Positions 36,771-50,609 of a stretch of DNA of 64,000 nt are shown here, piece after piece. Both the position numbers and the translations under genes were made by a program. Below the pieces are notes generated by a model that was not told the DNA's origin, searched no databases, and saw only the letters and a program-made list of their open reading frames with translations. The stretch is from Variovorax sp. J22G73 (GTDB lineage: Bacteria; Pseudomonadota; Gammaproteobacteria; Burkholderiales; Burkholderiaceae_C), in NCBI RefSeq assembly GCF_030317035.1, contig NZ_JASZYK010000007.1:1-64000 (forward strand). The letters are read 5' to 3'. How positions within the stretch are numbered: position 1 is the stretch's first letter; every line of letters starts with the position of its first letter.

Positions 36771-36846
36771 GCCGGTGTAGCTCAGTCGGTAGAGCAGCTC
36801 ATTCGTAATGAGAAGGTCGGGTGTTCGATTCATCTCTCCGGCACCA
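36771..36846 (+). tRNA. tRNA-Thr (anticodon CGT), integration target
   Basis: 76-nt cloverleaf with acceptor GCCGGTG, anticodon loop TTCGTAA (CGT), T-loop TTCGATT and encoded CCA. The acceptor has one U-U mismatch (T6 with T67) and the T-stem uses two G-U pairs, because the 3' part reads CATCTCTCCGGC. The last 15 nt recur 2.77 kb downstream at 39603-39617, which marks it as an attachment site of a mobile element. Confidence 0.95.
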
Positions 36847-36847
36847 A
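36833..36847. repeat. Putative attL (tRNA-Thr 3' end)
   Basis: TCTCTCCGGCACCAA, identical to 39603-39617. It covers the tRNA acceptor 3' strand, discriminator base and CCA, a typical integrase crossover segment. Confidence 0.7.
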
Positions 36848-36998
36848 CAACCCAGTATCCATGCGGGTTGCAGGAGGGTTGGTGTATTTTTGGTGTAGCG
36901 CCCAGCCGGGACGATACCTCATAACCACGCTAGCCCACCTCAGTTTCCGCTGGGAAACTCAAAGCGTTGTGCATGTTTAGTGCACAAACGCGGAAGAC

Positions 36999-37021
36999 AG
37001 CCACCGAAAGGTGGCTTTTTT
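36999..37021 (+). terminator. Phage-like intrinsic terminator
   Basis: AGCCACC-GAAA-GGTGGCT followed by TTTTTT. It has a 7-bp stem with a GAAA tetraloop, of the compact type common in phages. A short hairpin (GTGCA-N7-TGCAC) lies 25 nt upstream at 36969-36985. Confidence 0.85.
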
Positions 37022-37102
37022 CTGCCCGTCGCTTGCTGCCTCCCGCTCCGACCAGCGAAGGCCTTAGCTATTGCATTTTTCGCATGGCAATCCTTGGCGC
37101 AT

Positions 37103-37810
37103 TCAAACCCGGGCGATCTTGTCGGTGACAGGATCGTTGGGCATGTAGCCAACGACGAAGCTCCAATTGGCATGCAGTTCCCAAAGAAATTGGCAGATGT
37201 ACTTCACTGGGTCTGCGGTGTAGTTCGGGTCATATTTCATGCGGTAGACCCGTTCTGTCAGTTGCTTGAAGAGTCCATGGACTTCAACATCTTGGATCAC
37301 GACGTTGTTCAAGATGTACGTGAGTTCGTCAGCCAGCAATTGCATTTCAAGCAATAGGCCGTCCACATAGTCTTGATTGGCCTCTAGCCCATTCGCCACG
37401 TCATACCAACGCTGCCTGTGGAAGTAGTCTTTGAACTTCGACTTTTCCGTTAGCTCATCGACATCCATCGTCGATAGTTGGAGGTTCCCTGCCCATGAGC
37501 AAATCTGAATCGTGTTGTGCTTGAAGTCTGCGTACCGGCGCGACAGGCTTTCCCGCAACAGTTTCCGCCGTTGACGCTCAGGGACGTGCACGACCAACAG
37601 CCAGAAAAAAACGCTGGTGAGGTAGCCTAGACACAGGTTGAATGCAATCGTGTTGGTCCATCCAAGCGCAAGCAGCAGCGGCTCGATATTAGTACCCCGA
37701 ATCGGCCCGAAAACTTTTTCGCCGCTGGTCACAAACATGCCAATCAGCGCCACCATCGAAAGGACGGATAGGGCGAATCCAACCCGGTGCTTCTCCAACC
37801 ACTGCAGCAT
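37103..37810 (-). CDS. Two-TM membrane protein of unknown function
   Basis: Not recognised. 235 residues: two hydrophobic helices (residues about 12-30 and 48-75), then a ~150-residue soluble, mostly helical part rich in charged and aromatic residues (SRRYADFKHNTIQICSW, DELTYILNNVVIQDVEVHGL, WELHANWSFVVGYMPND). GGAGA lies upstream of the ATG. Base composition is clearly less GC-rich than the core genes, as expected for island cargo. A membrane-anchored effector of a defence system is possible, but nothing in the sequence proves it. Confidence 0.7.
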   Translation of the reverse strand: MLQWLEKHRVGFALSVLSMVALIGMFVTSGEKVFGPIRGTNIEPLLLALGWTNTIAFNLCLGYLTSVFFWLLVVHVPERQRRKLLRESLSRRYADFKHNTIQICSWAGNLQLSTMDVDELTEKSKFKDYFHRQRWYDVANGLEANQDYVDGLLLEMQLLADELTYILNNVVIQDVEVHGLFKQLTERVYRMKYDPNYTADPVKYICQFLWELHANWSFVVGYMPNDPVTDKIARV

Positions 37811-37945
37811 TGCGTCTCCGAGATTTGTAACAGCATCGTAGCTCAGGCGAATGACTTGGCGTCAGCGTCTCTAGGCTTGAACTAATCTGGATGGAGGCCA
37901 GTAGATGGAACCAGCCCGTGAGACTTCGGCTTTCCTTGAAGGAAT

Positions 37946-38158
37946 ATGATTCGCACATACACGAACGAAGGTGACACTGTTCTCGGCAACTGCATGGGCA
38001 GCGGCACCACGGGCGTGGCTTGCATGAACACGGGTCGCCGGTTCATCGGCATGGAGCGACTGCCCGAATATTTCGAAATTGCCTGCGTGCGCATCGAGCG
38101 CGCGGTCACAGCGACCCTGCGCGCGCAACCCGACCTTATGAAGCTGGCTGAGGCTTAG
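37946..38158 (+). pseudogene. 3' remnant of a phage-type DNA methyltransferase
   Basis: Seventy codons matching only the C-terminal end of a DNA adenine/cytosine-N4 methylase: [52 protein letters not shown]. The SAM-binding GSGTTG motif is kept, the catalytic (D/N)PPY region is missing, and a stop lies three codons before the first ATG. Its last part and the hairpin after it are repeated at 38647-38773. Confidence 0.8.
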
Positions 38159-38204
38159 GAGCAGCCAAGGCCACGGCGTCGTTGCACTTCGACGCCATGG
38201 ACTG
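38078..38204 (+). repeat. Methyltransferase-tail repeat, copy 1
   Basis: 127 nt covering the end of the methylase remnant, its stop, and a hairpin (GGCGTCG with CGACGCC) ending in ATGGACTG. It aligns without gaps to 38647-38773; by hand count about 29 of 127 bases differ. Confidence 0.8.
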
Positions 38205-38227
38205 TCTAGGCCTTGCCTCTGGGCGCG

Positions 38228-38533
38228 TCAGTCCCTTGACATCAGGCCGCGACAGATATTGCAGCCGTCTTCGCCGTAGTCGCTGTCCTCCGACGTGGCC
38301 TTGATGATGTCGGTCATCTCGCGCCGGTCTTTGAACACGTCTTTCAATCCGCCGTTCCACTGGATGTTGCCAAGCTTGTACGCTTCAGTCACTTCCTCAT
38401 CGCCACCAACTGTGTAGGTGATCTCATCGTGGCTTTCACAGGTTTCCAGGAAGCCGCTCTTGACCAACAAATCGACGGCTGCTCGTTGTTTGCCTTCGTA
38501 CTCTGCCATCTCACGTTTGACAAGGCTCATCAT
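38228..38533 (-). CDS. Small acidic hypothetical protein
   Basis: Not recognised. 101 residues with predicted helices at the start (MMSLVKREMAEYEGKQRAAVDLLVKSGFL) and a Cys pair in the C-terminal DSDYGEDGCNICRGLMSRD. The start is chosen for the GGAGA eight bases upstream; an upstream ATG would add 16 residues. It lies between the two methyltransferase-tail copies, opposite in direction to them. Confidence 0.6.
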   Translation of the reverse strand: MMSLVKREMAEYEGKQRAAVDLLVKSGFLETCESHDEITYTVGGDEEVTEAYKLGNIQWNGGLKDVFKDRREMTDIIKATSEDSDYGEDGCNICRGLMSRD

Positions 38534-38625
38534 TTGTCTCCAGGTTATTGGTGATCCGCGAACATGCGGGCGGCTGAACACATTTCAACCCCTTGTCTTT
38601 CCAAGTAAGGCTAGTGGCGGTACGG

Positions 38626-38650
38626 GGGTCGGATATTGGTGTAGCAGTTG
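38626..38650. repeat. 25-bp imperfect direct repeat, left copy
   Basis: GGGTCGGATATTGGTGTAG plus six bases; 19 of 25 positions match 39442-39466. With the right copy it brackets the second methyltransferase-tail repeat and the TM-HEPN-like gene, so the block may be a unit that moved on its own. The TTGGTGTA core also recurs at 36879-36898. Confidence 0.45.
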
Positions 38651-38773
38651 CCTGCGAGCGCATCGAGCGTGCACTGGCACCTATCCCGACCGCGCAGCCA
38701 GACCTTCTGGAGTTGGCCGAAGCTTAGAAGCAGCCAAGCCCACGGCGCCGGTACATTCCGGCGCCATGGATTG
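38647..38773 (+). repeat. Methyltransferase-tail repeat, copy 2
   Basis: 127 nt, same extent as copy 1: ACERIERA-like codons, stop, then a GGCGCCGG-N6-CCGGCGCC hairpin that ends exactly at the ATG of the next gene. No further methylase sequence precedes it; the upstream joint coincides with the 25-bp repeat. Confidence 0.8.
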
Positions 38774-39395
38774 GCTCACCTTCATCGTCGAGATCTTCAA
38801 GGCACTGGCCTGGCCAGCAGTCGTACTGTACGTGATCATCCACTACCGAGACAAGTTCGCAGCGCTGCTGCCAAATCTACAGAAGCTTGAGGCAGGGCCG
38901 CTGAAGGCCGAGTTCGGCGCCGAGGCTGCCAAGGTCTTAGAGGAAGCGGAGACGATCCGGATTCAAGAGGGCGTGCCGGACAACATGATCGTGCTATCAG
39001 CGGATGAAAACGGCGCTCCATTAGAGATCGACCACATCCTCCCCGAGAAGCGGCCCGAAAGAGTGAACAAGCTGTTCGCTCTTACCCAGCCGACGGCCGC
39101 AATTCTGCTCGCGTGGGACAACATCGAAACCGCGATGAAGATGGCGATTGAGAGGCATGGCGTGTACGTATCCGAGCGCCACACTCAGCATCCGCACATG
39201 TGGCTGAATGCTCTGGCTAAACAAGGGCTCGTGACTGAAGAGACTTACACGCTGGTGAACGAGCTGCGAGACCTTCGGAATCGCGTTGCTCACGTCAAGC
39301 TAGAGCCAACACCTGAGGCCGCATGGGACTACGTTCAGGCTTCAGACCGCCTCGTCCCAACGATCCTGAAACAGGCCGAGCGGTCATCGAAGTAG
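38766..39395 (+). CDS. Membrane-anchored protein with HEPN-like RxxxxH motif
   Basis: Not assigned to a family. 209 residues: one N-terminal membrane helix (residues about 4-26, WLTFIVEIFKALAWPAVVLYVII), a charged linker, and a helical domain ending in LVNELRDLRNRVAHVKLEPTPEAAW. The RNRVAH sequence fits the R-x4-H motif of HEPN ribonucleases and follows a long helix, as in DUF4145-like proteins. The ATG lies directly after a strong hairpin of repeat copy 2, which could limit translation. A TM-HEPN design is seen in abortive-infection effectors; that role is inference. Confidence 0.7.
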   Translation: MDWLTFIVEIFKALAWPAVVLYVIIHYRDKFAALLPNLQKLEAGPLKAEFGAEAAKVLEEAETIRIQEGVPDNMIVLSADENGAPLEIDHILPEKRPERVNKLFALTQPTAAILLAWDNIETAMKMAIERHGVYVSERHTQHPHMWLNALAKQGLVTEETYTLVNELRDLRNRVAHVKLEPTPEAAWDYVQASDRLVPTILKQAERSSK

Positions 39396-39441
39396 CTTGC
39401 ATCCCGAAGGCATTTTGTCTGGTGTTCAACCGGCGATCTGA

Positions 39442-39466
39442 GGGTCGAAATTTGGTGCAGCAACTG
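39442..39466. repeat. 25-bp imperfect direct repeat, right copy
   Basis: GGGTCGAAATTTGGTGCAG plus six bases, matching 38626-38650 at 19 of 25 positions. It lies 46 nt after the TM-HEPN-like gene. Confidence 0.45.
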
Positions 39467-39602
39467 GTGTAGAACGCGACGGTTTGATATGTCGATAGGT
39501 GGGGATTCACGGTTTCTGACTGAGCAGAACCTGCCTGTTTTCCATCTGAAATGGGCCATTTATGGCGATAGGCGTACAAAGATGGGAGAGGTGCATTTTT
39601 CG

Positions 39603-39617
39603 TCTCTCCGGCACCAA
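39603..39617. repeat. Putative attR (tRNA-Thr 3' end copy)
   Basis: TCTCTCCGGCACCAA, identical to the tRNA-Thr end at 36833-36847, followed five bases later by an intrinsic terminator. Confidence 0.7.
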
Positions 39618-39688: not shown

Positions 39689-40576
39689 TCAGCTCGGGTC
39701 AGACAACTCTAGAACCTGCAGCCTGTCTTTCAGAGCCGAGTTCTTTTCATGTGCGTGCTCACCGTAATGCACCTCGCGATGGCAAGACGGGCAAAGTGCA
39801 GCAACAAACTGCGGGTGATCGGGCCCTCCGTCAGACAGCCGCGTGGTGTGGTGAGGTTCTAGATACAACAAGCCGCCCTTTCTGCGAAACGGCGCCGGCT
39901 GCTCGCAAAGCTCGCATTTCCCCGCCGCGCGTCGCAGCACATAGTCGCGCACTGCACGACTGCGTTCATAAATCGTGCGACTGCCCTTCTTGCTGTCACC
40001 CGATCCGTCGACCTTCGACGCGGCAATTGCTCGACTTCTAAATTCTTGAAGCGTCATGCCCTCATCCGGCTCAACTGCCGGGGAAAGCTCAAGCCGCTCC
40101 AAACGCGCAACGGGCGCCAAATGAAAAATAATCGCCTGCCGCAAATTGCCCTTGAGATCAGGCGCGGTGACCCATTCGTGATCTTGATAAATGAACTCGC
40201 CAAGATACTTTTGGAGCTTACGCTTGGCCTTCCCTTTTCCTTCCACAACAGTGCGGAATAGATGTAGCGCTTTGCCTCTGCTCGAGTGGCTCTTAATCGC
40301 AAGATTGCCCCGCTCAAACCTCATATCGCCTTCTTGTCCTTCGCCAAAGAATAAGAAGGTGCCTTCATCGTCATATCGGTCGTGGTAACCATAGCGCTCA
40401 CCACTTTCGCCAGTAAACAAGAACGTAACAGGCGATCTTGCCGAATCAGAAATTCCGCCTTGTCTCCCACCTCCATACGGGATATTTAGATTTGGCCATC
40501 GGTCATAAACGTGGCCCAGATCAAACGAAGGGAGATCGGGGTCAGCTATCGGAGGTGAAGCGCTTTTTTCTTTCAT
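39689..40576 (-). CDS. HNH endonuclease, McrA-like
   Basis: 295 residues. The C-terminal HNH domain is complete: CELC (about 221), LEPHHTTRLSDGGPDHPQFVAALCPSCHREVHYG (about 239-272), with the zinc cysteines and catalytic His. The N-terminal ~190 residues (YGYHDRYDDEGTFLFFGEGQEGDMRFERGNLAI and FRTVVEGKGKAKRKLQKYLGEF) resemble the modified-base-reading part of ScoMcrA/SRA-type type IV restriction enzymes. It may therefore cut methylated or otherwise modified phage DNA. Start MKEKSASPP is preferred over an ATG 12 codons upstream. It diverges from the MazG-DUF2075 pair. Confidence 0.82.
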   Translation of the reverse strand: MKEKSASPPIADPDLPSFDLGHVYDRWPNLNIPYGGGRQGGISDSARSPVTFLFTGESGERYGYHDRYDDEGTFLFFGEGQEGDMRFERGNLAIKSHSSRGKALHLFRTVVEGKGKAKRKLQKYLGEFIYQDHEWVTAPDLKGNLRQAIIFHLAPVARLERLELSPAVEPDEGMTLQEFRSRAIAASKVDGSGDSKKGSRTIYERSRAVRDYVLRRAAGKCELCEQPAPFRRKGGLLYLEPHHTTRLSDGGPDHPQFVAALCPSCHREVHYGEHAHEKNSALKDRLQVLELSDPS

Positions 40577-40972
40577 CCTCAACCTGCCGAGGAATTGAAT
40601 GCCGACTCGCAAATCGACATCGATCTTTTCGCTTGAAAGCTATCGCGCTGAGACCGCATTGCACGACCTGCGTAGGAGTTACCGTTCATCACCCGCCCTG
40701 AATTAACGATTCGTGACACACTTTAACGTCAATCGTTCGAGCTAGCTAACTATTGGTTCGCGAACGATCGGCGCGCGGGTTCGATGAGGCGACGATCTAC
40801 AGGGAAGAAGTGCGGTTGTGGCGTCTGCCGTCCTGCACGACTGTAAAGTCCCTCTGTCTCGACCGATACACTTGTTTCATGATCAGGGCCTGCCGGCGAC
40901 GTCCACCCCTCCGACGCGAGCACAGCCCGAATCAGCAATTTCCTTGGCAATGGGCAATAGGAGAGCCTCAAC
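40577..40972. promoter_or_regulatory. Divergent control region between HNH and MazG-like genes
   Basis: 396 bases with no supported gene and lower GC. It contains an 8-bp inverted repeat with wide spacing, ATCGTTCG (40732-40739) and CGAACGAT (40761-40768), with an inner palindrome TTCGCGAA at 40757-40764. Promoters for both directions should lie here, and the repeats could bind a repressor. Confidence 0.4.
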
Positions 40973-41386
40973 ATGACCGATGCGACTGACGCAACGTCAG
41001 GCACCGCGCTTGTCGACTTCGCGCAACTTGCAGCCCATTTGGAGCAATTCGCCACGGAGCGCGACTGGGCCCAGTTCCATTCCCCCAAGAACTTGGTCAT
41101 GGCGCTGACCGGAGAAGTTGGCGAACTGAACGAAATCTTCCAGTGGATGCCCGAAGAAGCGTCCAAGGAAGCCGGCCGCAATCCGCAAACGGCCCAAGCC
41201 GTTAAAGACGAACTTGCAGACGTTTTGCTCTACCTCGTTCGCCTGTCTTCCGTGCTCGGCGTGGACCTTGATGCCGCCGTTCAACAGAAGCTGAAGGCCA
41301 ACGCCCTGCGCTACCCCGCAGACAAGGTGCGTGGCAGCAGCCAAAAGCACAGCCGGTCCGAAGCTGGCGAATCCGGGAAGGACTGA
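40973..41386 (+). CDS. MazG-like nucleotide pyrophosphohydrolase
   Basis: 137 residues of the all-alpha NTP pyrophosphohydrolase class (MazG/RS21-C6-like). The metal-binding pattern is LTGEVGELNEIFQW (Glu48, Glu51) and KDELADVLLYLVRL (Glu80, Asp83). Proteins of this size clean up or deplete NTPs or dNTPs. Start has AGGAGAG upstream. The next gene begins one base after its stop, so they form a tight two-gene operon. In this position a role in depleting nucleotides during phage attack, or in making a signal, is possible but unproven. Confidence 0.85.
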   Translation: MTDATDATSGTALVDFAQLAAHLEQFATERDWAQFHSPKNLVMALTGEVGELNEIFQWMPEEASKEAGRNPQTAQAVKDELADVLLYLVRLSSVLGVDLDAAVQQKLKANALRYPADKVRGSSQKHSRSEAGESGKD

Positions 41387-41387
41387 T

Positions 41388-43271
41388 GTGATCGTCTACG
41401 AGGCCGACAAGAAGCAATTTCTCAGCGACAACAACGACCGCGACATCGAAGACGTCATCCTTGCCAAGTACTTCAGCGCCACGGGCCGCAAAGTGCCGGC
41501 GGCGGAGATGAGGGCGTGGCGCGATTCGCTCGGGTACATGTCGAAGGTGCTCAGCGACTCCGAGATTCCGAATGACGTTGGGGTGGCTGTCGAGCTTCAC
41601 ATTCCGCAAAGCTCCAAGCGCATCGACATCAGCCTGACCGGGCGAGGTCACGACAACACCAAGAACGTCGTCATCGTCGAACTCAAGCAATGGGACAAGG
41701 TGAAGTCTTCGATGAAAGACGCGCTGGTCAGCACCTACCTCGGCGGCGGGCACCGCGAGGTGGTGCACCCTTCGTACCAAGCGTGGTCCTATGCGTCGCT
41801 GATGGAGGGGTTCAACGAAGCCGTTTACTCCGGCGGCATCGCCGTCCAGGCTTGCGCCTACCTGCACAACTACGAGCGCGATGGCGTCATCGACTCGCCC
41901 CACTACGCCGACTACATCGCAAAGGCCCCGCTATTTTTGCGCGGTGAGACCGAGCGCGGCATGCTGCGCAATTTCATCAAGCAGCACATCAAGTTCGGTG
42001 ACCCGAGCGTGCTCTACGAACTGGCCAACGGCCGCATCCGGCCATCGAAAGCACTCAGTGACAGCCTTGCAGGGCTGCTCAAGGGCAATGCCGAGTTCAT
42101 CTTGATCGATGACCAGAAAGAGGTCTACGAGCACATCTTGGCCGCCGGCCGGTCCGCATCGAGCACGAACCCAAAAGTGGTGATCGTCGAAGGCGGCCCC
42201 GGAACGGGCAAGACAGTTCTTGCCATCAACGCACTCGTTACCTTGATGGGGGCCGGACTGAACTGCAAGTACGTTTCGAAGAACGCTGCGCCCCGGCGTG
42301 TCTACGAGACCAAGCTCGTCGGGACGATGAAGCGCACGCACTACGTCAACCTGTTCACTGGCTCGGGCGGCTTCATCAATACACCCGCCGACCAATTCGA
42401 TGTGCTGATCGTGGACGAGGCGCACCGCCTGAACGAAAAGAGCGGGCTGTACGGCAACCTGGGCGAGAACCAAGTCAAAGAGCTCATAGCTGCCGCGAAG
42501 TGCACCGTGTTCTTCATCGACGAAGACCAGCGCGTGGCGCTGAGCGACATCGGCACCAAGCAGACCATTCGCGACTTCGGTGTCGGCAAAGGCGCGGAGG
42601 TGTCGCAGCACGAACTGGCCTCGCAGTTCAGGTGCAGCGGGTCAGACGGCTACATCGCGTGGCTGGACGACACGCTCGGTGTGCGAGAAACCGCCAACAA
42701 GATGCTGACGCCCGCAGAGTTCGATTTTCAGGTCTTCAGCACGCCCGACCAGCTGCACGCCTCGATCGCCGCCAAGAACACGACCGGTACCGCGCGCGTG
42801 GTCGCCGGTTACTGCTGGCCATGGACCAGCAAGAAAGATCCGAAGGCCTTCGACATCGTCATCGGCAGCTACCGGAAGCGCTGGAACCTCGACGTCGACG
42901 GCAGCTTGTGGATCATTGCGCCGAACTCGATCAACGAAGTGGGCTGCATTCACACCTGCCAGGGCCTGGAGGTGGACTACATCGGCGTCATCATCGGGCC
43001 GGACCTGATCGTGCGAGACGGCCACGTTCGCACCGAGCCAACGGCACGAGACCGCTTCGACAAAACCCTGCGCGGCCACAAGACCCGCGCCAAAACCAAC
43101 CCAAAAAACGCCGCTGCAGCAGCCGACCTCATCATCAAGAACACCTACCGCACGCTCATGACGCGCGGCATGAAAGGGTGTTACGTCTACTGCAGCGACG
43201 AAGAGACCGCGCTCTACTTTCGCGACCGGCTGTCACCCGGTGCGCTTGCCGCGGTCTTCACCAAACCTTGA
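41388..43271 (+). CDS. DUF2075 nuclease-helicase protein
   Basis: 627 residues from a GTG start with AAGGA upstream. The N-terminal ~200 residues contain a PD-(D/E)xK-like set: Asp80 in KRIDISL, then VVIVELKQW (Glu98, Lys100) and a later Gln131. The DUF2075 ATPase core follows: Walker A GGPGTGKT at 269-276, Walker B DVLIVDEAH at 338-346, FFIDEDQRV near 376, and the C-terminal helicase motifs TCQGLEVDYIG and YRTLMTRGMKG. This is an SF1-type engine fused to a likely nuclease, as seen in Schlafen-like and other antiviral ATPases. Its coupling to a MazG gene suggests one system. Confidence 0.85.
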   Translation: MIVYEADKKQFLSDNNDRDIEDVILAKYFSATGRKVPAAEMRAWRDSLGYMSKVLSDSEIPNDVGVAVELHIPQSSKRIDISLTGRGHDNTKNVVIVELKQWDKVKSSMKDALVSTYLGGGHREVVHPSYQAWSYASLMEGFNEAVYSGGIAVQACAYLHNYERDGVIDSPHYADYIAKAPLFLRGETERGMLRNFIKQHIKFGDPSVLYELANGRIRPSKALSDSLAGLLKGNAEFILIDDQKEVYEHILAAGRSASSTNPKVVIVEGGPGTGKTVLAINALVTLMGAGLNCKYVSKNAAPRRVYETKLVGTMKRTHYVNLFTGSGGFINTPADQFDVLIVDEAHRLNEKSGLYGNLGENQVKELIAAAKCTVFFIDEDQRVALSDIGTKQTIRDFGVGKGAEVSQHELASQFRCSGSDGYIAWLDDTLGVRETANKMLTPAEFDFQVFSTPDQLHASIAAKNTTGTARVVAGYCWPWTSKKDPKAFDIVIGSYRKRWNLDVDGSLWIIAPNSINEVGCIHTCQGLEVDYIGVIIGPDLIVRDGHVRTEPTARDRFDKTLRGHKTRAKTNPKNAAAAADLIIKNTYRTLMTRGMKGCYVYCSDEETALYFRDRLSPGALAAVFTKP

Positions 43272-43286
43272 AAGCGATCCGTCAGA

Positions 43287-43604
43287 TCAGCGGCGGGCGC
43301 TGGCGCTCGCCGGCTGAGGGGCTCCTTCAGGCTTGGCTTGTGGCCGATCCATCGCGTTGAGCCGCTTCAACAGCTCCTGGGCGAGCCGGGCAACATCGTC
43401 CGCTAGGTCGGACGCGATCCACATGATGTTGTCCCGGTGCCGCTCCCCTATTCCCTCGAACCACTCGCTCCAGTCGCCGTAGCAGCAACTCAGCAGAGAT
43501 TGCATTTGGGTCAACTTGTTCTCAAGAATGTCCAACGCGTCCGGGCCCTCGGCGGGGTCGGTGGGGGTGGGCGAGTTTTGCCCGGCGATAATTTGATCAG
43601 CCAT
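43287..43604 (-). CDS. Small hypothetical protein, convergent with DUF2075 gene
   Basis: 105 residues, not confidently assigned. The centre (ALDILENKLTQMQSLLSCCYGDW, then NIMWIASDLADDVARLAQEL) is two amphipathic helices and resembles small Pseudomonas-type DUF3077 proteins. Pro-rich, disordered ends flank it. AAGGAG upstream supports MADQII as start. It ends 15 nt from the DUF2075 stop on the other strand. Confidence 0.6.
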   Translation of the reverse strand: MADQIIAGQNSPTPTDPAEGPDALDILENKLTQMQSLLSCCYGDWSEWFEGIGERHRDNIMWIASDLADDVARLAQELLKRLNAMDRPQAKPEGAPQPASASARR

Positions 43605-43647
43605 TTGATGTGCACTCCTTCGAAAGATTGGCACGTTGATTGGTCAG

Positions 43648-47686: not shown

Positions 47687-48904
47687 TCATTCATCGACGG
47701 ATTTCATGATTTTCTTCAACCATTTCTTCCATTCGCCGTGCGTCATTTTCGTGATCTCGTCGGCCGCTTTTTTGTAAGCCCCTTTGCAGCCGGGGTCGTA
47801 CTTGTCGATGGACTCGAGAATCTTGTCCGTGTTCTCCTTGGCCGCTCGCTGCAGGTCTTGCATGTCCCTGTCGGGGCGCTTGAGGCCGTCGATCTTCTGG
47901 TGCTGCCGACCACCGTAGGTTTCGCTGTGCTTCTGGTGGAGCTCGCCCGGGATCGCAATGGTCGGCGCATTTTCGACGATGGCCGCGATCTCAAGGGCAT
48001 TCAGGGCTTCGCCCTTGACCTCGCGAGCAGCCCTGAGCAGCGCCTCCTTGGAAGGCACATGATCCCAGTTCACGCCGGCGTTGTCGTGGTTGTTGCGGTC
48101 CTTGTAGGGGCCTTTCTGTCCGCACTTGGGCTTTGGCTTGGGCTTCTTCTTGACCTGGGTGTCCTTCTTCTTGGAGCCACCCGACTCGGCCTTTGAAGCG
48201 GCCTTCTTTTCCGCCGCTTCCTGCGCCGCTTCCTGCGCCGCTTTTTCGGCCGCGGCCTCCGCGGCTTCCTTCTCGAGCTTCTCTTTCGCAATGCGCTCCG
48301 CGAGCAGCTTCTCGGCCTGCTTGATCCCGGCGCGCTCGCCGCCTTTCAACGCCCCCTTGATCGCCACCTTGCCCGCCTTGGCGGCGATGCCGCCGCCGGG
48401 CACCAGGTTGGCCGCCGCCGACGCGCCGGAGATCGCGGCATTCGCGTAGTCGCCTTCGGCCGCGTAGATGGCCGCGTTGGCACCATCCGAAAAAATACCC
48501 ACCACCGGAATGACGCCGCCGATGTCGAGCACCGTGTGCGTGACCGAGCTGCCCCAGCTGCTCCACCAGCTCTCTTCCTTCGGCGTCTCGGGCTTCACCT
48601 CGGGGTTGGCCTGCTGCGCCTTGGCGGCGGTCGAAGGGGTTTCGCCGACCACGGTGCCCAGGGTGTTGCCGTTGGCGTTGGTGCCGGGCTTGCGTGGCTT
48701 GAGCTCGGGCAGCTCGAGCGTGGGCTTTTCTTGCCGCAGCGCCGCGTACTGCTCGTGCGACATGTTCCAGGTGTTCTGCGCCGGCCCCAGGTCGGACGGA
48801 AAGTACAGCAGCGACACCGAGTCGGCGTAGTTGTAGCCCACCAGCCGCCCGCCATTGCCGACCGACCTGCTGAACGCGGGAGCGATGTCCACCGTGACGG
48901 CCAT
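47687..48904 (-). CDS. Polymorphic toxin effector of the T6SS island
   Basis: 405 residues. N-terminal ~120 residues contain VGYNYADSVSLLYFPSDLGP. A pretoxin-type hydrophobic stretch follows at about 135-185 (GGVIPVVGIFSDGANAAIYAAEGDYANAAISGASAAA), then a coiled-coil Ala/Glu/Lys linker (about 200-255), then a ~145-residue C-terminal toxin with GVNWDHVPSKEAL and AIPGELHQKHSETYGG. The Asp-His and His-x2-His-Ser residues suggest a metal-dependent nuclease, but I cannot assign a family. It follows the PAAR-like protein by 5 nt and overlaps the first immunity start region. Confidence 0.75.
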   Translation of the reverse strand: MAVTVDIAPAFSRSVGNGGRLVGYNYADSVSLLYFPSDLGPAQNTWNMSHEQYAALRQEKPTLELPELKPRKPGTNANGNTLGTVVGETPSTAAKAQQANPEVKPETPKEESWWSSWGSSVTHTVLDIGGVIPVVGIFSDGANAAIYAAEGDYANAAISGASAAANLVPGGGIAAKAGKVAIKGALKGGERAGIKQAEKLLAERIAKEKLEKEAAEAAAEKAAQEAAQEAAEKKAASKAESGGSKKKDTQVKKKPKPKPKCGQKGPYKDRNNHDNAGVNWDHVPSKEALLRAAREVKGEALNALEIAAIVENAPTIAIPGELHQKHSETYGGRQHQKIDGLKRPDRDMQDLQRAAKENTDKILESIDKYDPGCKGAYKKAADEITKMTHGEWKKWLKKIMKSVDE

Positions 48905-48909
48905 GCGCG

Positions 48910-49266
48910 CTACTTTCCGTTCATCCAGAACAGGTCGTCGTGGCGCACGAGCAGCTTGCCCTCGGCGCGCACGGTGCGGCTGTGGTCCTTGGGGTAGCAC
49001 TTGCCCTGCACGGTGCCGCTCTTCACGCCCTTGGCGGCACCGGCCGCGTCGCCGATGGTGGTGGGCACCACGCTCATGTCGTAGACCACCACCGGGTGCC
49101 CGTTGGCGCGCACGCTGCTGGCCACCGCGGTGGTGCTCGCCAGCTGCGCGGTGACCGGATACGGCACAGGCGGAATGGCGCTCCCCATCGGGGTCTTGCA
49201 CACATCAGGCGCCAGGCTCACGACGCGCCAGCTGCCCTGCTTGCGGGCGGCGACGTTGGCGGTCAT
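48910..49266 (-). CDS. PAAR-like protein (DUF4150), T6SS spike tip
   Basis: 118 residues, DUF4150 type: SLAPDVCKTPMGSAIPPVPYPV near the start, TTIGDAAGAAKGVKSGTVQGKCYPKDHSRTVRAEGKLLVRHDDLFWMNGK to the end. Such proteins cap VgrG and carry the toxin. The ATG overlaps the stop of the DUF2169 gene (ATGA), and the toxin follows, so it links spike and effector. Confidence 0.88.
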   Translation of the reverse strand: MTANVAARKQGSWRVVSLAPDVCKTPMGSAIPPVPYPVTAQLASTTAVASSVRANGHPVVVYDMSVVPTTIGDAAGAAKGVKSGTVQGKCYPKDHSRTVRAEGKLLVRHDDLFWMNGK

Positions 49267-50609
49267 GCCACGGGCTCCATCGCGCCCGGTGCGGGGGCCG
49301 CGTGCGGCGCGGGGCGAACCAATGGCGCGGCGGGGTCGGTCTCGAAGCGCGCCTCGACGACCCGCACGGGCGCGTCCGACGGAATCCACACCCGGTGCAC
49401 CAGCGACAGCGTCATGGCCTGCGCATCGACGAGCAGCGTGTCGGTCACCATGGGCAGGGGCAGGAGCGCGCCGTTTTCCAGCCGCAGCAGCACCAGCGCG
49501 CGGTGCCCAGGCAGCGTGACGCGCAAGTGGCCGTCGGGCGTCGATGCCGGCTCGCTCAGGTTCCACAGCTCGATGCATGCATCGGGCGGCAGGTAGGGCA
49601 CCTGCTGGTCGGCGGGCGCGGCGTTCCAGTAGCCGAAGTCGAGGTCGTGCGGCGGCCAGGGGTGGCGCTGCGCGAGCCAGGCATCGTCGTAGGTGCCGGC
49701 CAGCGCCAGCCGCGGCGCCCAGGCCCGGCCCACCACGCCCAGGCCGGCCGGCGCGCGCCCGTAGCCCCTGGCGGTTTCTGCCATGGCCTGCGCGTCCAGG
49801 CCGGTGCCGGCATGTGTGGCGAGCAGGGGCTGGTGCATGCGCTCGTGCGCGAATTCGATGCGCGGCGCCGGCATGCGCTCGATGTCGGGCAGGCCGGCGT
49901 GGCGCGCCTGCTCGATGGCGCGCCGGTCCAGCCACCCCTGGCCGAGGGGGTTCGAAAAGCACACCTCGTTCAGCAGCGGCGGCGCGTCGTCGCGCGCACC
50001 GGGCTTGCGCAGCAAGGTACGGCCGCCAAACGCGTGCTCCCATCGCATGTCCAGGCTCAGCATGGGCTCGCTGGCGGTGCGCGCCCATTCGCGCCCGTTG
50101 CGCAGGTAGAAGAGCGACGGACCGCTCACGCGCAAGCGCTTGTCGAGCACGGCGCGCGGCGCGGCTTGCGCGCTGGCACGCTGGCGCTCGTCGTCCCACG
50201 CGGCTTGCTGCTGCGAGGTGAGCCGTGCGCCCGGGTGCAGGGGCCGGGGCGGCTCGGGGGCCCGCACCCACTGGCGGCCGGCCGTCACCTTCACGCGCAC
50301 TTCCCATTCGCTTGCCGCCACGCCGTGGGGCGCATGGGCGGTGGCATTCACGATCACGTCGCAGCGCGGCTTGCAGGGTGCGAGGTCGCTCTCTTCGCGC
50401 GGGCTCGACGCGCCCTCCTCGCCCCAGTAGGCGTCGGCCATTGCCAGCGGCACGGGGTCGTCGTCGTTCACTTCGGCCGCCCACCCGCCACGCGCACCCT
50501 GCATGAGCCGGTAGCCCACCTTCATCGCGACCACCCGGTACTCGCGGTCGCTGGGCGTGGCCGCGCGAAAGCACAGGGCGTCGAAGGGCGTGAGATTGCG
50601 GAACTCCAC
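49263..50609 (-). CDS. DUF2169 protein, T6SS adaptor/chaperone
   Basis: 448 residues matching DUF2169 (MEFRNLTPFDALCFRA, VAMKVGYRLMQGARGGW, SFHW-free beta-rich body with AFGG and YWNAAPADQQ). Proteins with this domain occur between VgrG and DUF4150/PAAR-toxin genes and are thought to load the effector. Length is typical for the longer members. It starts 22 nt after the end of vgrG. Confidence 0.85.
   Translation of the reverse strand: MEFRNLTPFDALCFRAATPSDREYRVVAMKVGYRLMQGARGGWAAEVNDDDPVPLAMADAYWGEEGASSPREESDLAPCKPRCDVIVNATAHAPHGVAASEWEVRVKVTAGRQWVRAPEPPRPLHPGARLTSQQQAAWDDERQRASAQAAPRAVLDKRLRVSGPSLFYLRNGREWARTASEPMLSLDMRWEHAFGGRTLLRKPGARDDAPPLLNEVCFSNPLGQGWLDRRAIEQARHAGLPDIERMPAPRIEFAHERMHQPLLATHAGTGLDAQAMAETARGYGRAPAGLGVVGRAWAPRLALAGTYDDAWLAQRHPWPPHDLDFGYWNAAPADQQVPYLPPDACIELWNLSEPASTPDGHLRVTLPGHRALVLLRLENGALLPLPMVTDTLLVDAQAMTLSLVHRVWIPSDAPVRVVEARFETDPAAPLVRPAPHAAPAPGAMEPVA

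What the first reader, a model, noticed from the sequence alone, without database searches (positions are those of the whole stretch)
39689..43271. Candidate defence module: HNH/McrA-like + MazG-like + DUF2075 nuclease-helicase
A MazG-like pyrophosphohydrolase and a nuclease-helicase (PD-(D/E)xK-like N-terminus plus DUF2075 ATPase) are coupled with one base between them. They diverge from an HNH enzyme with a modified-base-reading N-terminus, directly next to a tRNA-borne island. Nucleotide depletion plus DNA or RNA unwinding and cutting is a plausible antiviral combination. I do not know of an experimentally characterised system with exactly this pair.
Basis: partly seen in the sequence, partly recalled or inferred. 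Interest (0 to 1): 0.72.

Follow-up and report, generated by a model that had tools for sequence, protein, structure and literature searches.

The report
MazG plus nuclease-helicase defence gene pair
Two genes that often stay side by side across distant bacteria, one predicted to destroy DNA building blocks and one predicted to unwind and cut DNA, sit among anti-virus genes and often next to enzymes that may cut chemically modified DNA, which suggests an undescribed anti-phage system.

Summary
The genes are real and the pairing is more than chance. A MazG homologue lies beside the helicase in 64 of 80 relatives held, 62 directly upstream, 11 with a 4-base overlap. The helicase is accessory: full-length in 10 of 101 genus genomes, matched in 22 of 399 order genomes. 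Its neighbours (400 proteins) match 69, 118 and 44 PADLOC families in three batches; 118 control proteins near fbp in some of the same genomes match one.

MazG resembles dCTP pyrophosphatase DCTPP1. The second protein has four invariant PD-(D/E)xK-type residues and a Schlafen-group SF1 motor.

The HNH gene is separable, but its slot is telling. At the fbp/tRNA-Thr hotspot all seven pairs found share the site with a predicted modification-dependent restriction enzyme: McrA-like in three, AspBHI-family in four. Elsewhere restriction-type nucleases lie within 600 bp in 27 of 80 loci.

Best reading: a defence module joining nucleotide-pool attack to a nuclease-helicase, often beside an exchangeable restriction enzyme. 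Defence is well supported; mechanism is inferred. I found no description of the pair in the library searched.

The parts
40973..41386 (+). MazG-like NTP pyrophosphohydrolase, 137 aa, DCTPP1/RS21-C6-like
   Evidence: Pfam PF12643 4.3e-11 and PF03819 4.4e-6; PDB 6sqw DCTPP1 8e-26; E48, E51, D83, W32 invariant, E80 and W58 nearly so in 30 sequences
41388..43271 (+). Nuclease-helicase, 627 aa, GTG start
   Evidence: PF09848 SLFN-g3_helicase 326 bits, cut-off 24; model pLDDT 87.4
41388..42077 (+). N-terminal domain with PD-(D/E)xK-type residues E69, D80, E98, K100 (codons at 41592, 41625, 41679, 41685)
   Evidence: invariant in 60 relatives; fold of this part not tested alone; weak NERD match E 0.0034 in one archaeal homologue
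42174..43199 (+). SF1 helicase domain; Walker A GGPGTGK at 42192-42212
39689..40576 (-). McrA-like HNH enzyme, probable start ATG 40576 (ORF from TTG 40612); likely exchangeable partner or hotspot neighbour
   Evidence: EcoKMcrA 6ghc 8.5e-17, ScoMcrA 5zmm 8.6e-12; PF01844; PADLOC mREase_IV 2.9e-17; homologues
36771..36846 (+). tRNA-Thr (CGT), left edge of the variable site
   Evidence: also next to fbp in 20 of 20 fetched genus loci
36848..39617 (.). Separate 2.8 kb insert ended by a 15-nt tRNA 3'-end repeat (36833-36847 and 39603-39617); not part of the module
43287..43634 (-). 115-aa ORF, right edge of the variable site
   Evidence: matched in 14 of 20 fetched genus loci

Best explanation
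The MazG and nuclease-helicase genes form one mobile anti-phage defence module. Inferred mechanism: MazG, a dCTP-pyrophosphatase-like enzyme, removes dCTP or C5-modified dCTP that a phage needs. The second protein loads on foreign DNA, often DNA already recognised or cut by a neighbouring modification-dependent restriction enzyme (here the McrA-like HNH protein), and unwinds it with its SF1 motor while its N-terminal PD-(D/E)xK-like domain cuts it. Shown: conserved linkage, conserved catalytic residues, residence among defence genes, patchy distribution, recurrent restriction-type neighbours. Inferred: substrates, order of events, phage protection. Separate estimates: defence module 0.85; functional link with an adjacent restriction enzyme 0.45; this detailed mechanism 0.3. 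The figure below is for the statement as a whole.
For: Pair in 64 of 80 loci, 62 directly upstream on the same strand, 11 with 4-base overlap; downstream in L057 and convergent in L077. Of 17 further fetched loci 12 have MazG; without five repeats of earlier loci, 9 of 12. Matched distances r 0.80. Accessory: 10 of 101 full-length, 22 of 399. PADLOC at 1e-20: 69, 118 and 44 families in 400 neighbours, with components of Wadjet, Zorya, Kiwa, Ssp, Druantia, Shedu and type IV enzymes, against 1 family in 118 control proteins. Restriction-type nucleases within 600 bp in 27 of 80 loci, none among 373 control ORFs. AspBHI-family protein beside L002 (4oc8 5.4e-101). MrcB_N proteins beside MazG in a Priestia plasmid and in G222. 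Conserved residues. DCTPP1 hydrolyses dCTP and 5-methyl, 5-formyl and 5-halogenated forms (PMC7162842, passages).
Against: 16 of 80 helicases have no MazG by tblastn or profile search; 11 of these have over 1 kb of upstream sequence held, so MazG is not obligatory. 53 of 80 loci show none of the tested nuclease types within 600 bp. Of the 13 representatives in that count 11 came from the 80 loci, so it partly describes its own source; in the 12 new loci only 2 have one. No substrate is known; the MazG fold also serves housekeeping, and this genome holds a second MazG-like protein. The nuclease fold was not tested alone. PADLOC gives MazG no match and the helicase weak ones. No protection data exist.
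Confidence: 0.5

Rival explanations
1. MazG is a self-protection enzyme: it keeps salvaged or phage-made 5-modified dCTP out of host DNA, so that a neighbouring modification-dependent restriction enzyme does not cut the host, while the nuclease-helicase clears foreign DNA.
For: DCTPP1 likeness with W32 and W58 conserved; restriction-type enzymes of several kinds beside the pair; MutT homologues beside SauUSI homologues noted in a figure legend of PMC7641849.
Against: 53 of 80 loci show no tested restriction-type enzyme within 600 bp. Whether the host can make 5-methyl-dCTP is unknown.
Confidence: 0.2
2. Abortive infection: on infection MazG drains nucleotides and the nuclease-helicase damages host as well as phage nucleic acid, so the infected cell dies or stops before phage release.
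For: Nuclease plus nucleotide hydrolase in one operon among defence genes; S24 (LexA-type) extension in 18 of 80 helicases, a possible link to DNA damage.
Against: No trigger, no toxicity data; the window protein lacks the S24 extension.
Confidence: 0.15
3. A DNA-repair or nucleotide-sanitation pair that is merely carried in islands.
For: UvrD-like motor; MazG and DCTPP1 relatives are house-cleaning enzymes (PMC7162842, passages).
Against: Present in about a tenth of the genus and a twentieth of the order; strong excess of defence neighbours over control.
Confidence: 0.1
4. The HNH gene has no functional tie to the pair: the fbp/tRNA-Thr site simply collects defence genes.
For: HNH and pair occur apart at this site; no HNH homologue in 80 loci.
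Against: In all seven pairs at the site a predicted modification-dependent enzyme of one of two kinds lies between tRNA and MazG; in two genomes a MazG remnant lies next to the HNH gene.
Confidence: 0.4

Closest known systems
DCTPP1 / RS21-C6 dCTP pyrophosphatase (MazG superfamily)
   Same: Gap-free alignment over 105 residues, 8e-26; DCTPP1 positions E63, E66, E95, D98, W47, W73 present (their roles are recalled)
   Different: DCTPP1 is known as a nucleotide-pool enzyme; here the gene is coupled to a nuclease-helicase among defence genes
Schlafen group 3 helicases (PF09848; human SLFN11)
   Different: No Schlafen RNase domain hit; N-terminus carries PD-(D/E)xK-type residues instead
Nuclease-helicase defence proteins Nhi, AbiO, PDC-S41, NERD-helicase
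   Same: Weak PADLOC matches, 38 to 46 bits, in the helicase; nuclease plus SF1 motor layout (recalled)
   Different: Partial coverage; no MazG partner named in those models
Modification-dependent restriction enzymes: EcoKMcrA, ScoMcrA, AspBHI/LpnPI/MspJI, MrcB_N-HNH, SauUSI-like
   Same: Lie beside the pair at the hotspot or elsewhere
   Different: They are neighbours, not the pair; none is constant
SauUSI homologues with MutT neighbours (PMC7641849, figure legend)
   Same: A nucleoside-triphosphate pyrophosphohydrolase next to a modification-dependent enzyme
   Different: MutT is Nudix, not MazG; no PF09848 helicase mentioned in the passages seen

Membership tests
MazG-like all-alpha NTP pyrophosphohydrolase | acidic metal-binding residues of the site | tested here: met
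   E48, E51, D83 invariant and E80 in at least 90% of 30 sequences; two Pfam models over cut-off
DCTPP1-type dCTP pyrophosphatase | hydrolysis of dCTP and C5-modified dCTP | not testable with these tools
   sequence likeness only
SLFN-g3 helicase (PF09848) | profile match over cut-off with Walker A and DEAH-type box | tested here: met
   326 bits; motifs conserved
Schlafen proteins with RNase core | Schlafen RNase domain | tested here: not met
   no such Pfam match at E up to 1
PD-(D/E)xK nuclease | D and ExK residues conserved | tested here: met
   D80, E98, K100 and E69 invariant in 60 sequences
PD-(D/E)xK nuclease | restriction-endonuclease-like fold | tested here: inconclusive
   strand order in the model is compatible; N-terminal part barely covered by the structure rows; no PDB profile hit
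McrA-like modification-dependent restriction enzyme (HNH protein) | HNH domain of McrA type | tested here: met
   6ghc 8.5e-17; PF01844 over cut-off
McrA-like modification-dependent restriction enzyme (HNH protein) | modified-base reader at the N-terminus | tested here: inconclusive
   ScoMcrA match from residue 44; SAD_SRA E 0.12, under cut-off; AspBHI N-domain resemblance E 0.002 and 0.005, probability 7%
Nhi / AbiO defence proteins | match over most of the model | tested here: not met
   38 and 42 bits, helicase part only, residues 234-391
Anti-phage defence system | patchy distribution among defence genes | tested here: met
Anti-phage defence system | reduces phage plating | not testable with these tools

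The most novel reading that the evidence does not exclude
A conserved effector pair that serves many different modification-dependent restriction enzymes: the neighbour (McrA-like, AspBHI-like, MrcB_N-HNH, SauUSI-like and others) supplies recognition of modified cytosine, the nuclease-helicase destroys the marked DNA, and MazG destroys the modified dCTP before it can be built into phage DNA or salvaged into the host. Base-modified phages would then be attacked at both the precursor and the polymer level.
Probability: 0.25. Interest if true: 0.82.

Novelty: new variant of a known kind. Interest (0 to 1): 0.64.

Why it matters
If right, it adds a widespread undescribed defence module that joins nucleotide-pool attack to a restriction-like nuclease-helicase, offers a reason why a dCTP-pyrophosphatase-like gene sits next to enzymes of the kind that cut modified cytosine, and makes testable whether bacteria fight base-modified phages by destroying the modified precursors as well as the DNA.

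Tried and rejected
Considered and rejected. (1) HNH, MazG and helicase as one fixed three-gene module: no HNH homologue in the 80 loci at E 1e-4 and separate occurrence at the hotspot. (2) A tRNA-borne island carrying the module: the insert ends at 39617 and the module lies outside it. (3) Schlafen-type RNase: no domain hit. (4) Core housekeeping pair: against its prevalence. (6) E. coli carriage: no DNA match in 20,395 records (DNA-level search only).

Led nowhere. A PDB profile search with the N-terminal domain found nothing. The N-terminal domain alone could not be folded, and the Foldseek search of the whole model was never accepted, so the VIA second look stands alone. Profile comparison of the HNH and AspBHI N-termini gave E 0.005 at 7% probability, against 0.28 to 0.46 for four unrelated pairings: suggestive only. 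Paper searches: searches listed no papers, one, five (titles only), longer lists; passages were seen of PMC13092281, PMC7641849 (section 9 whole), PMC7162842, PMC11090510 and PMC12839542. Preprints are not held.

Limits of the counts. PADLOC neighbours: of 407 selected, 401 after removing repeats, 400 given; the one left out is a remainder of the broken helicase in L012. Control: 118 of 174 selected proteins given because of the residue cap, from 20 loci, 19 at fbp and one (L135) at a place I mistyped; L155 was excluded because it holds the pair. Immediate neighbours: 146 selected, 137 after removing near-duplicates, 133 given, within the residue cap. ORFs were called by a longest-ORF rule and include spurious ones. 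One protein can match many PADLOC families, so family counts exceed gene counts, and only the first 25 families of each batch were shown.
Full report

The pair is a unit. A scan of one genome per species gave 80 loci held, 53 to 92% identical. MazG is adjacent in 64 of 80; in 62 of these it is directly upstream on the same strand, gap -4 to 51 bp, 11 with a 4-base overlap; in L057 it lies downstream and in L077 it is convergent. A profile search of the other 16 found none; five of these have under 1 kb of upstream sequence. Record titles include Proteobacteria, Bacteroidota, Peribacteria and Falkowbacteria. On plasmids a haloarchaeon and a Priestia have both genes; Methanosphaera, Hymenobacter and Streptomyces records show the helicase with no annotated MazG within the stretch read (that gene table is incomplete). 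Phage record Mwe-JY31 carries both. MazG and helicase distances correlate (r 0.80, 63 pairs, 0 of 2000 permutations); vertical descent contributes.

It is accessory and lives with defence genes. In the genus 13 of 101 genomes match; 10 are full-length, 10 of 10 with MazG beside, and three hold only C-terminal fragments. In the order 22 of 399 match at E 1e-60, some of them partial or under 40% identical. Up to three ORFs on each side of the loci (400 proteins) matched 69, 118 and 44 PADLOC families at 1e-20, among those shown components of Wadjet, Zorya, Kiwa, Shosta, PsyrTA, Ssp, Olokun, DISARM, Druantia, Shedu, SIR2 and type IV enzymes. The same test on 118 proteins from 20 control loci in genomes that carry the pair matched one family, mad3, with 3 members. 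GC is lower in the HNH (0.54), MazG (0.60) and helicase (0.61) genes than in the window (0.66).

The hotspot. fbp is in 97 of 101 genus genomes and is followed by tRNA-Thr in 20 of 20 loci fetched; a 115-aa ORF marks the right edge in 14 of the 20. The window, G044 and G026 have the HNH gene divergent from MazG-helicase. G023, G091, G072 and G063 have the HNH gene without an intact pair; in G072 and G063 a MazG remnant lies next to it. G008, G009, G034 and G062 have the pair without that HNH but with an AspBHI-family protein on the opposite strand: 128 and 149 bp upstream of MazG in L001 and L002, which are the G008 and G009 loci by coordinates, and somewhere between tRNA and MazG in G034 and G062. 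The L002 protein matches AspBHI 4oc8 at 5.4e-101. G061 keeps only a helicase fragment there and G035 helicase and MazG fragments. G022, G016 and G021 carry the pair on contigs other than that of fbp. So seven of seven pairs found at this site share it with a predicted modification-dependent restriction enzyme of one of two kinds; these are strains of one genus, not seven independent events.

Partners elsewhere. Pfam on 133 immediate neighbours put restriction-type domains on top: DUF3427 in 6, HNH_2 in 6, Mrr_cat in 5, NOV_C in 5, HNH_4 in 4, PLDc_2 and ResIII in 4 each, AspBHI_N in 2. Four loci (L059, L064, L075, L077) have a relative of the PLD-ResIII-DUF3427 protein next to the pair, an arrangement I recall for SauUSI; PADLOC finds four mREase_IV proteins in that batch. 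A protein with MrcB_N and a sub-threshold HNH match overlaps MazG in Priestia, and an MrcB_N protein lies beside MazG in G222. With 13 representatives 27 of 80 loci have one within 600 bp and none of 373 control ORFs matches. Eleven representatives came from the 80 loci, one from the window and one from Priestia, so this describes rather than tests. In the 17-locus sample 4 have one, 2 of them repeats, so 2 of 12 new loci. Most loci therefore show no such neighbour.

Mechanism. The best-supported reading is a defence module in which a nuclease-helicase destroys foreign DNA and MazG removes nucleotides. DCTPP1 hydrolyses dCTP and 5-methyl, 5-formyl and 5-halogenated forms (PMC7162842, abstract and passages), which makes C5-modified dCTP an attractive but untested substrate, in keeping with neighbours of AspBHI, McrA and MrcB_N type. 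A precedent for a pyrophosphohydrolase next to a modification-dependent enzyme is the MutT homologue beside SauUSI homologues in PMC7641849 (figure legend; section 9 read). DefensePredictor lists MazG among uncharacterised predicted defence domains (PMC13092281, passages).

Standing. My searches of the open library found no paper describing this pair (preprints and most subscription papers are not held). I file it as a new variant of a known kind: a defence module of known enzyme families in a combination not found described, with an unproven but testable link to restriction of modified DNA.

Noticed in passing
Helicase C-termini in L028, L029, L032, L036, L037, L039, L042, L044-L048, L054, L071, L072, L075, L076, L080: 21 of 80 helicase relatives carry a C-terminal extension; 18 have GESMN (those listed), three (L038, L041, L055) do not. 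The one tested, L036, matches Peptidase_S24 (LexA/UmuD type) over cut-off. MazG is present in 14 of the 21 and in 50 of the 59 without extension.
   Followed up: partly
36848-39617: Insert between tRNA 3'-end repeats with the C-terminal tail of an N6/N4 DNA methylase (37946-38158), a lambda ea8.5-like ORF (38228-38581), a weakly DUF4145-like ORF (38766-39395) and a 129-nt repeat (38079 and 38648, 78%). No integrase among the ORFs scanned.
   Followed up: partly
G000:C33:97470-97769 (outside the window): A second MazG-like protein, 45% identical over residues 16-117, on the same contig.
   Followed up: no
47687-50609: ORFs that by eye resemble a type VI secretion effector cluster (PAAR-like and DUF2169-like, recalled); not scanned.
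   Followed up: no
L212:8485-13830 and L214:9180-14327: ORFs of about 1,700 aa upstream of MazG in two genus genomes where the pair lies away from fbp; the L212 one has DEAD and UvrD helicase domains.
   Followed up: no
L160 (PP438423.1): Microcystis phage Mwe-JY31, a 22 kb record, carries MazG and helicase; whether it is a true phage genome is unclear.
   Followed up: no
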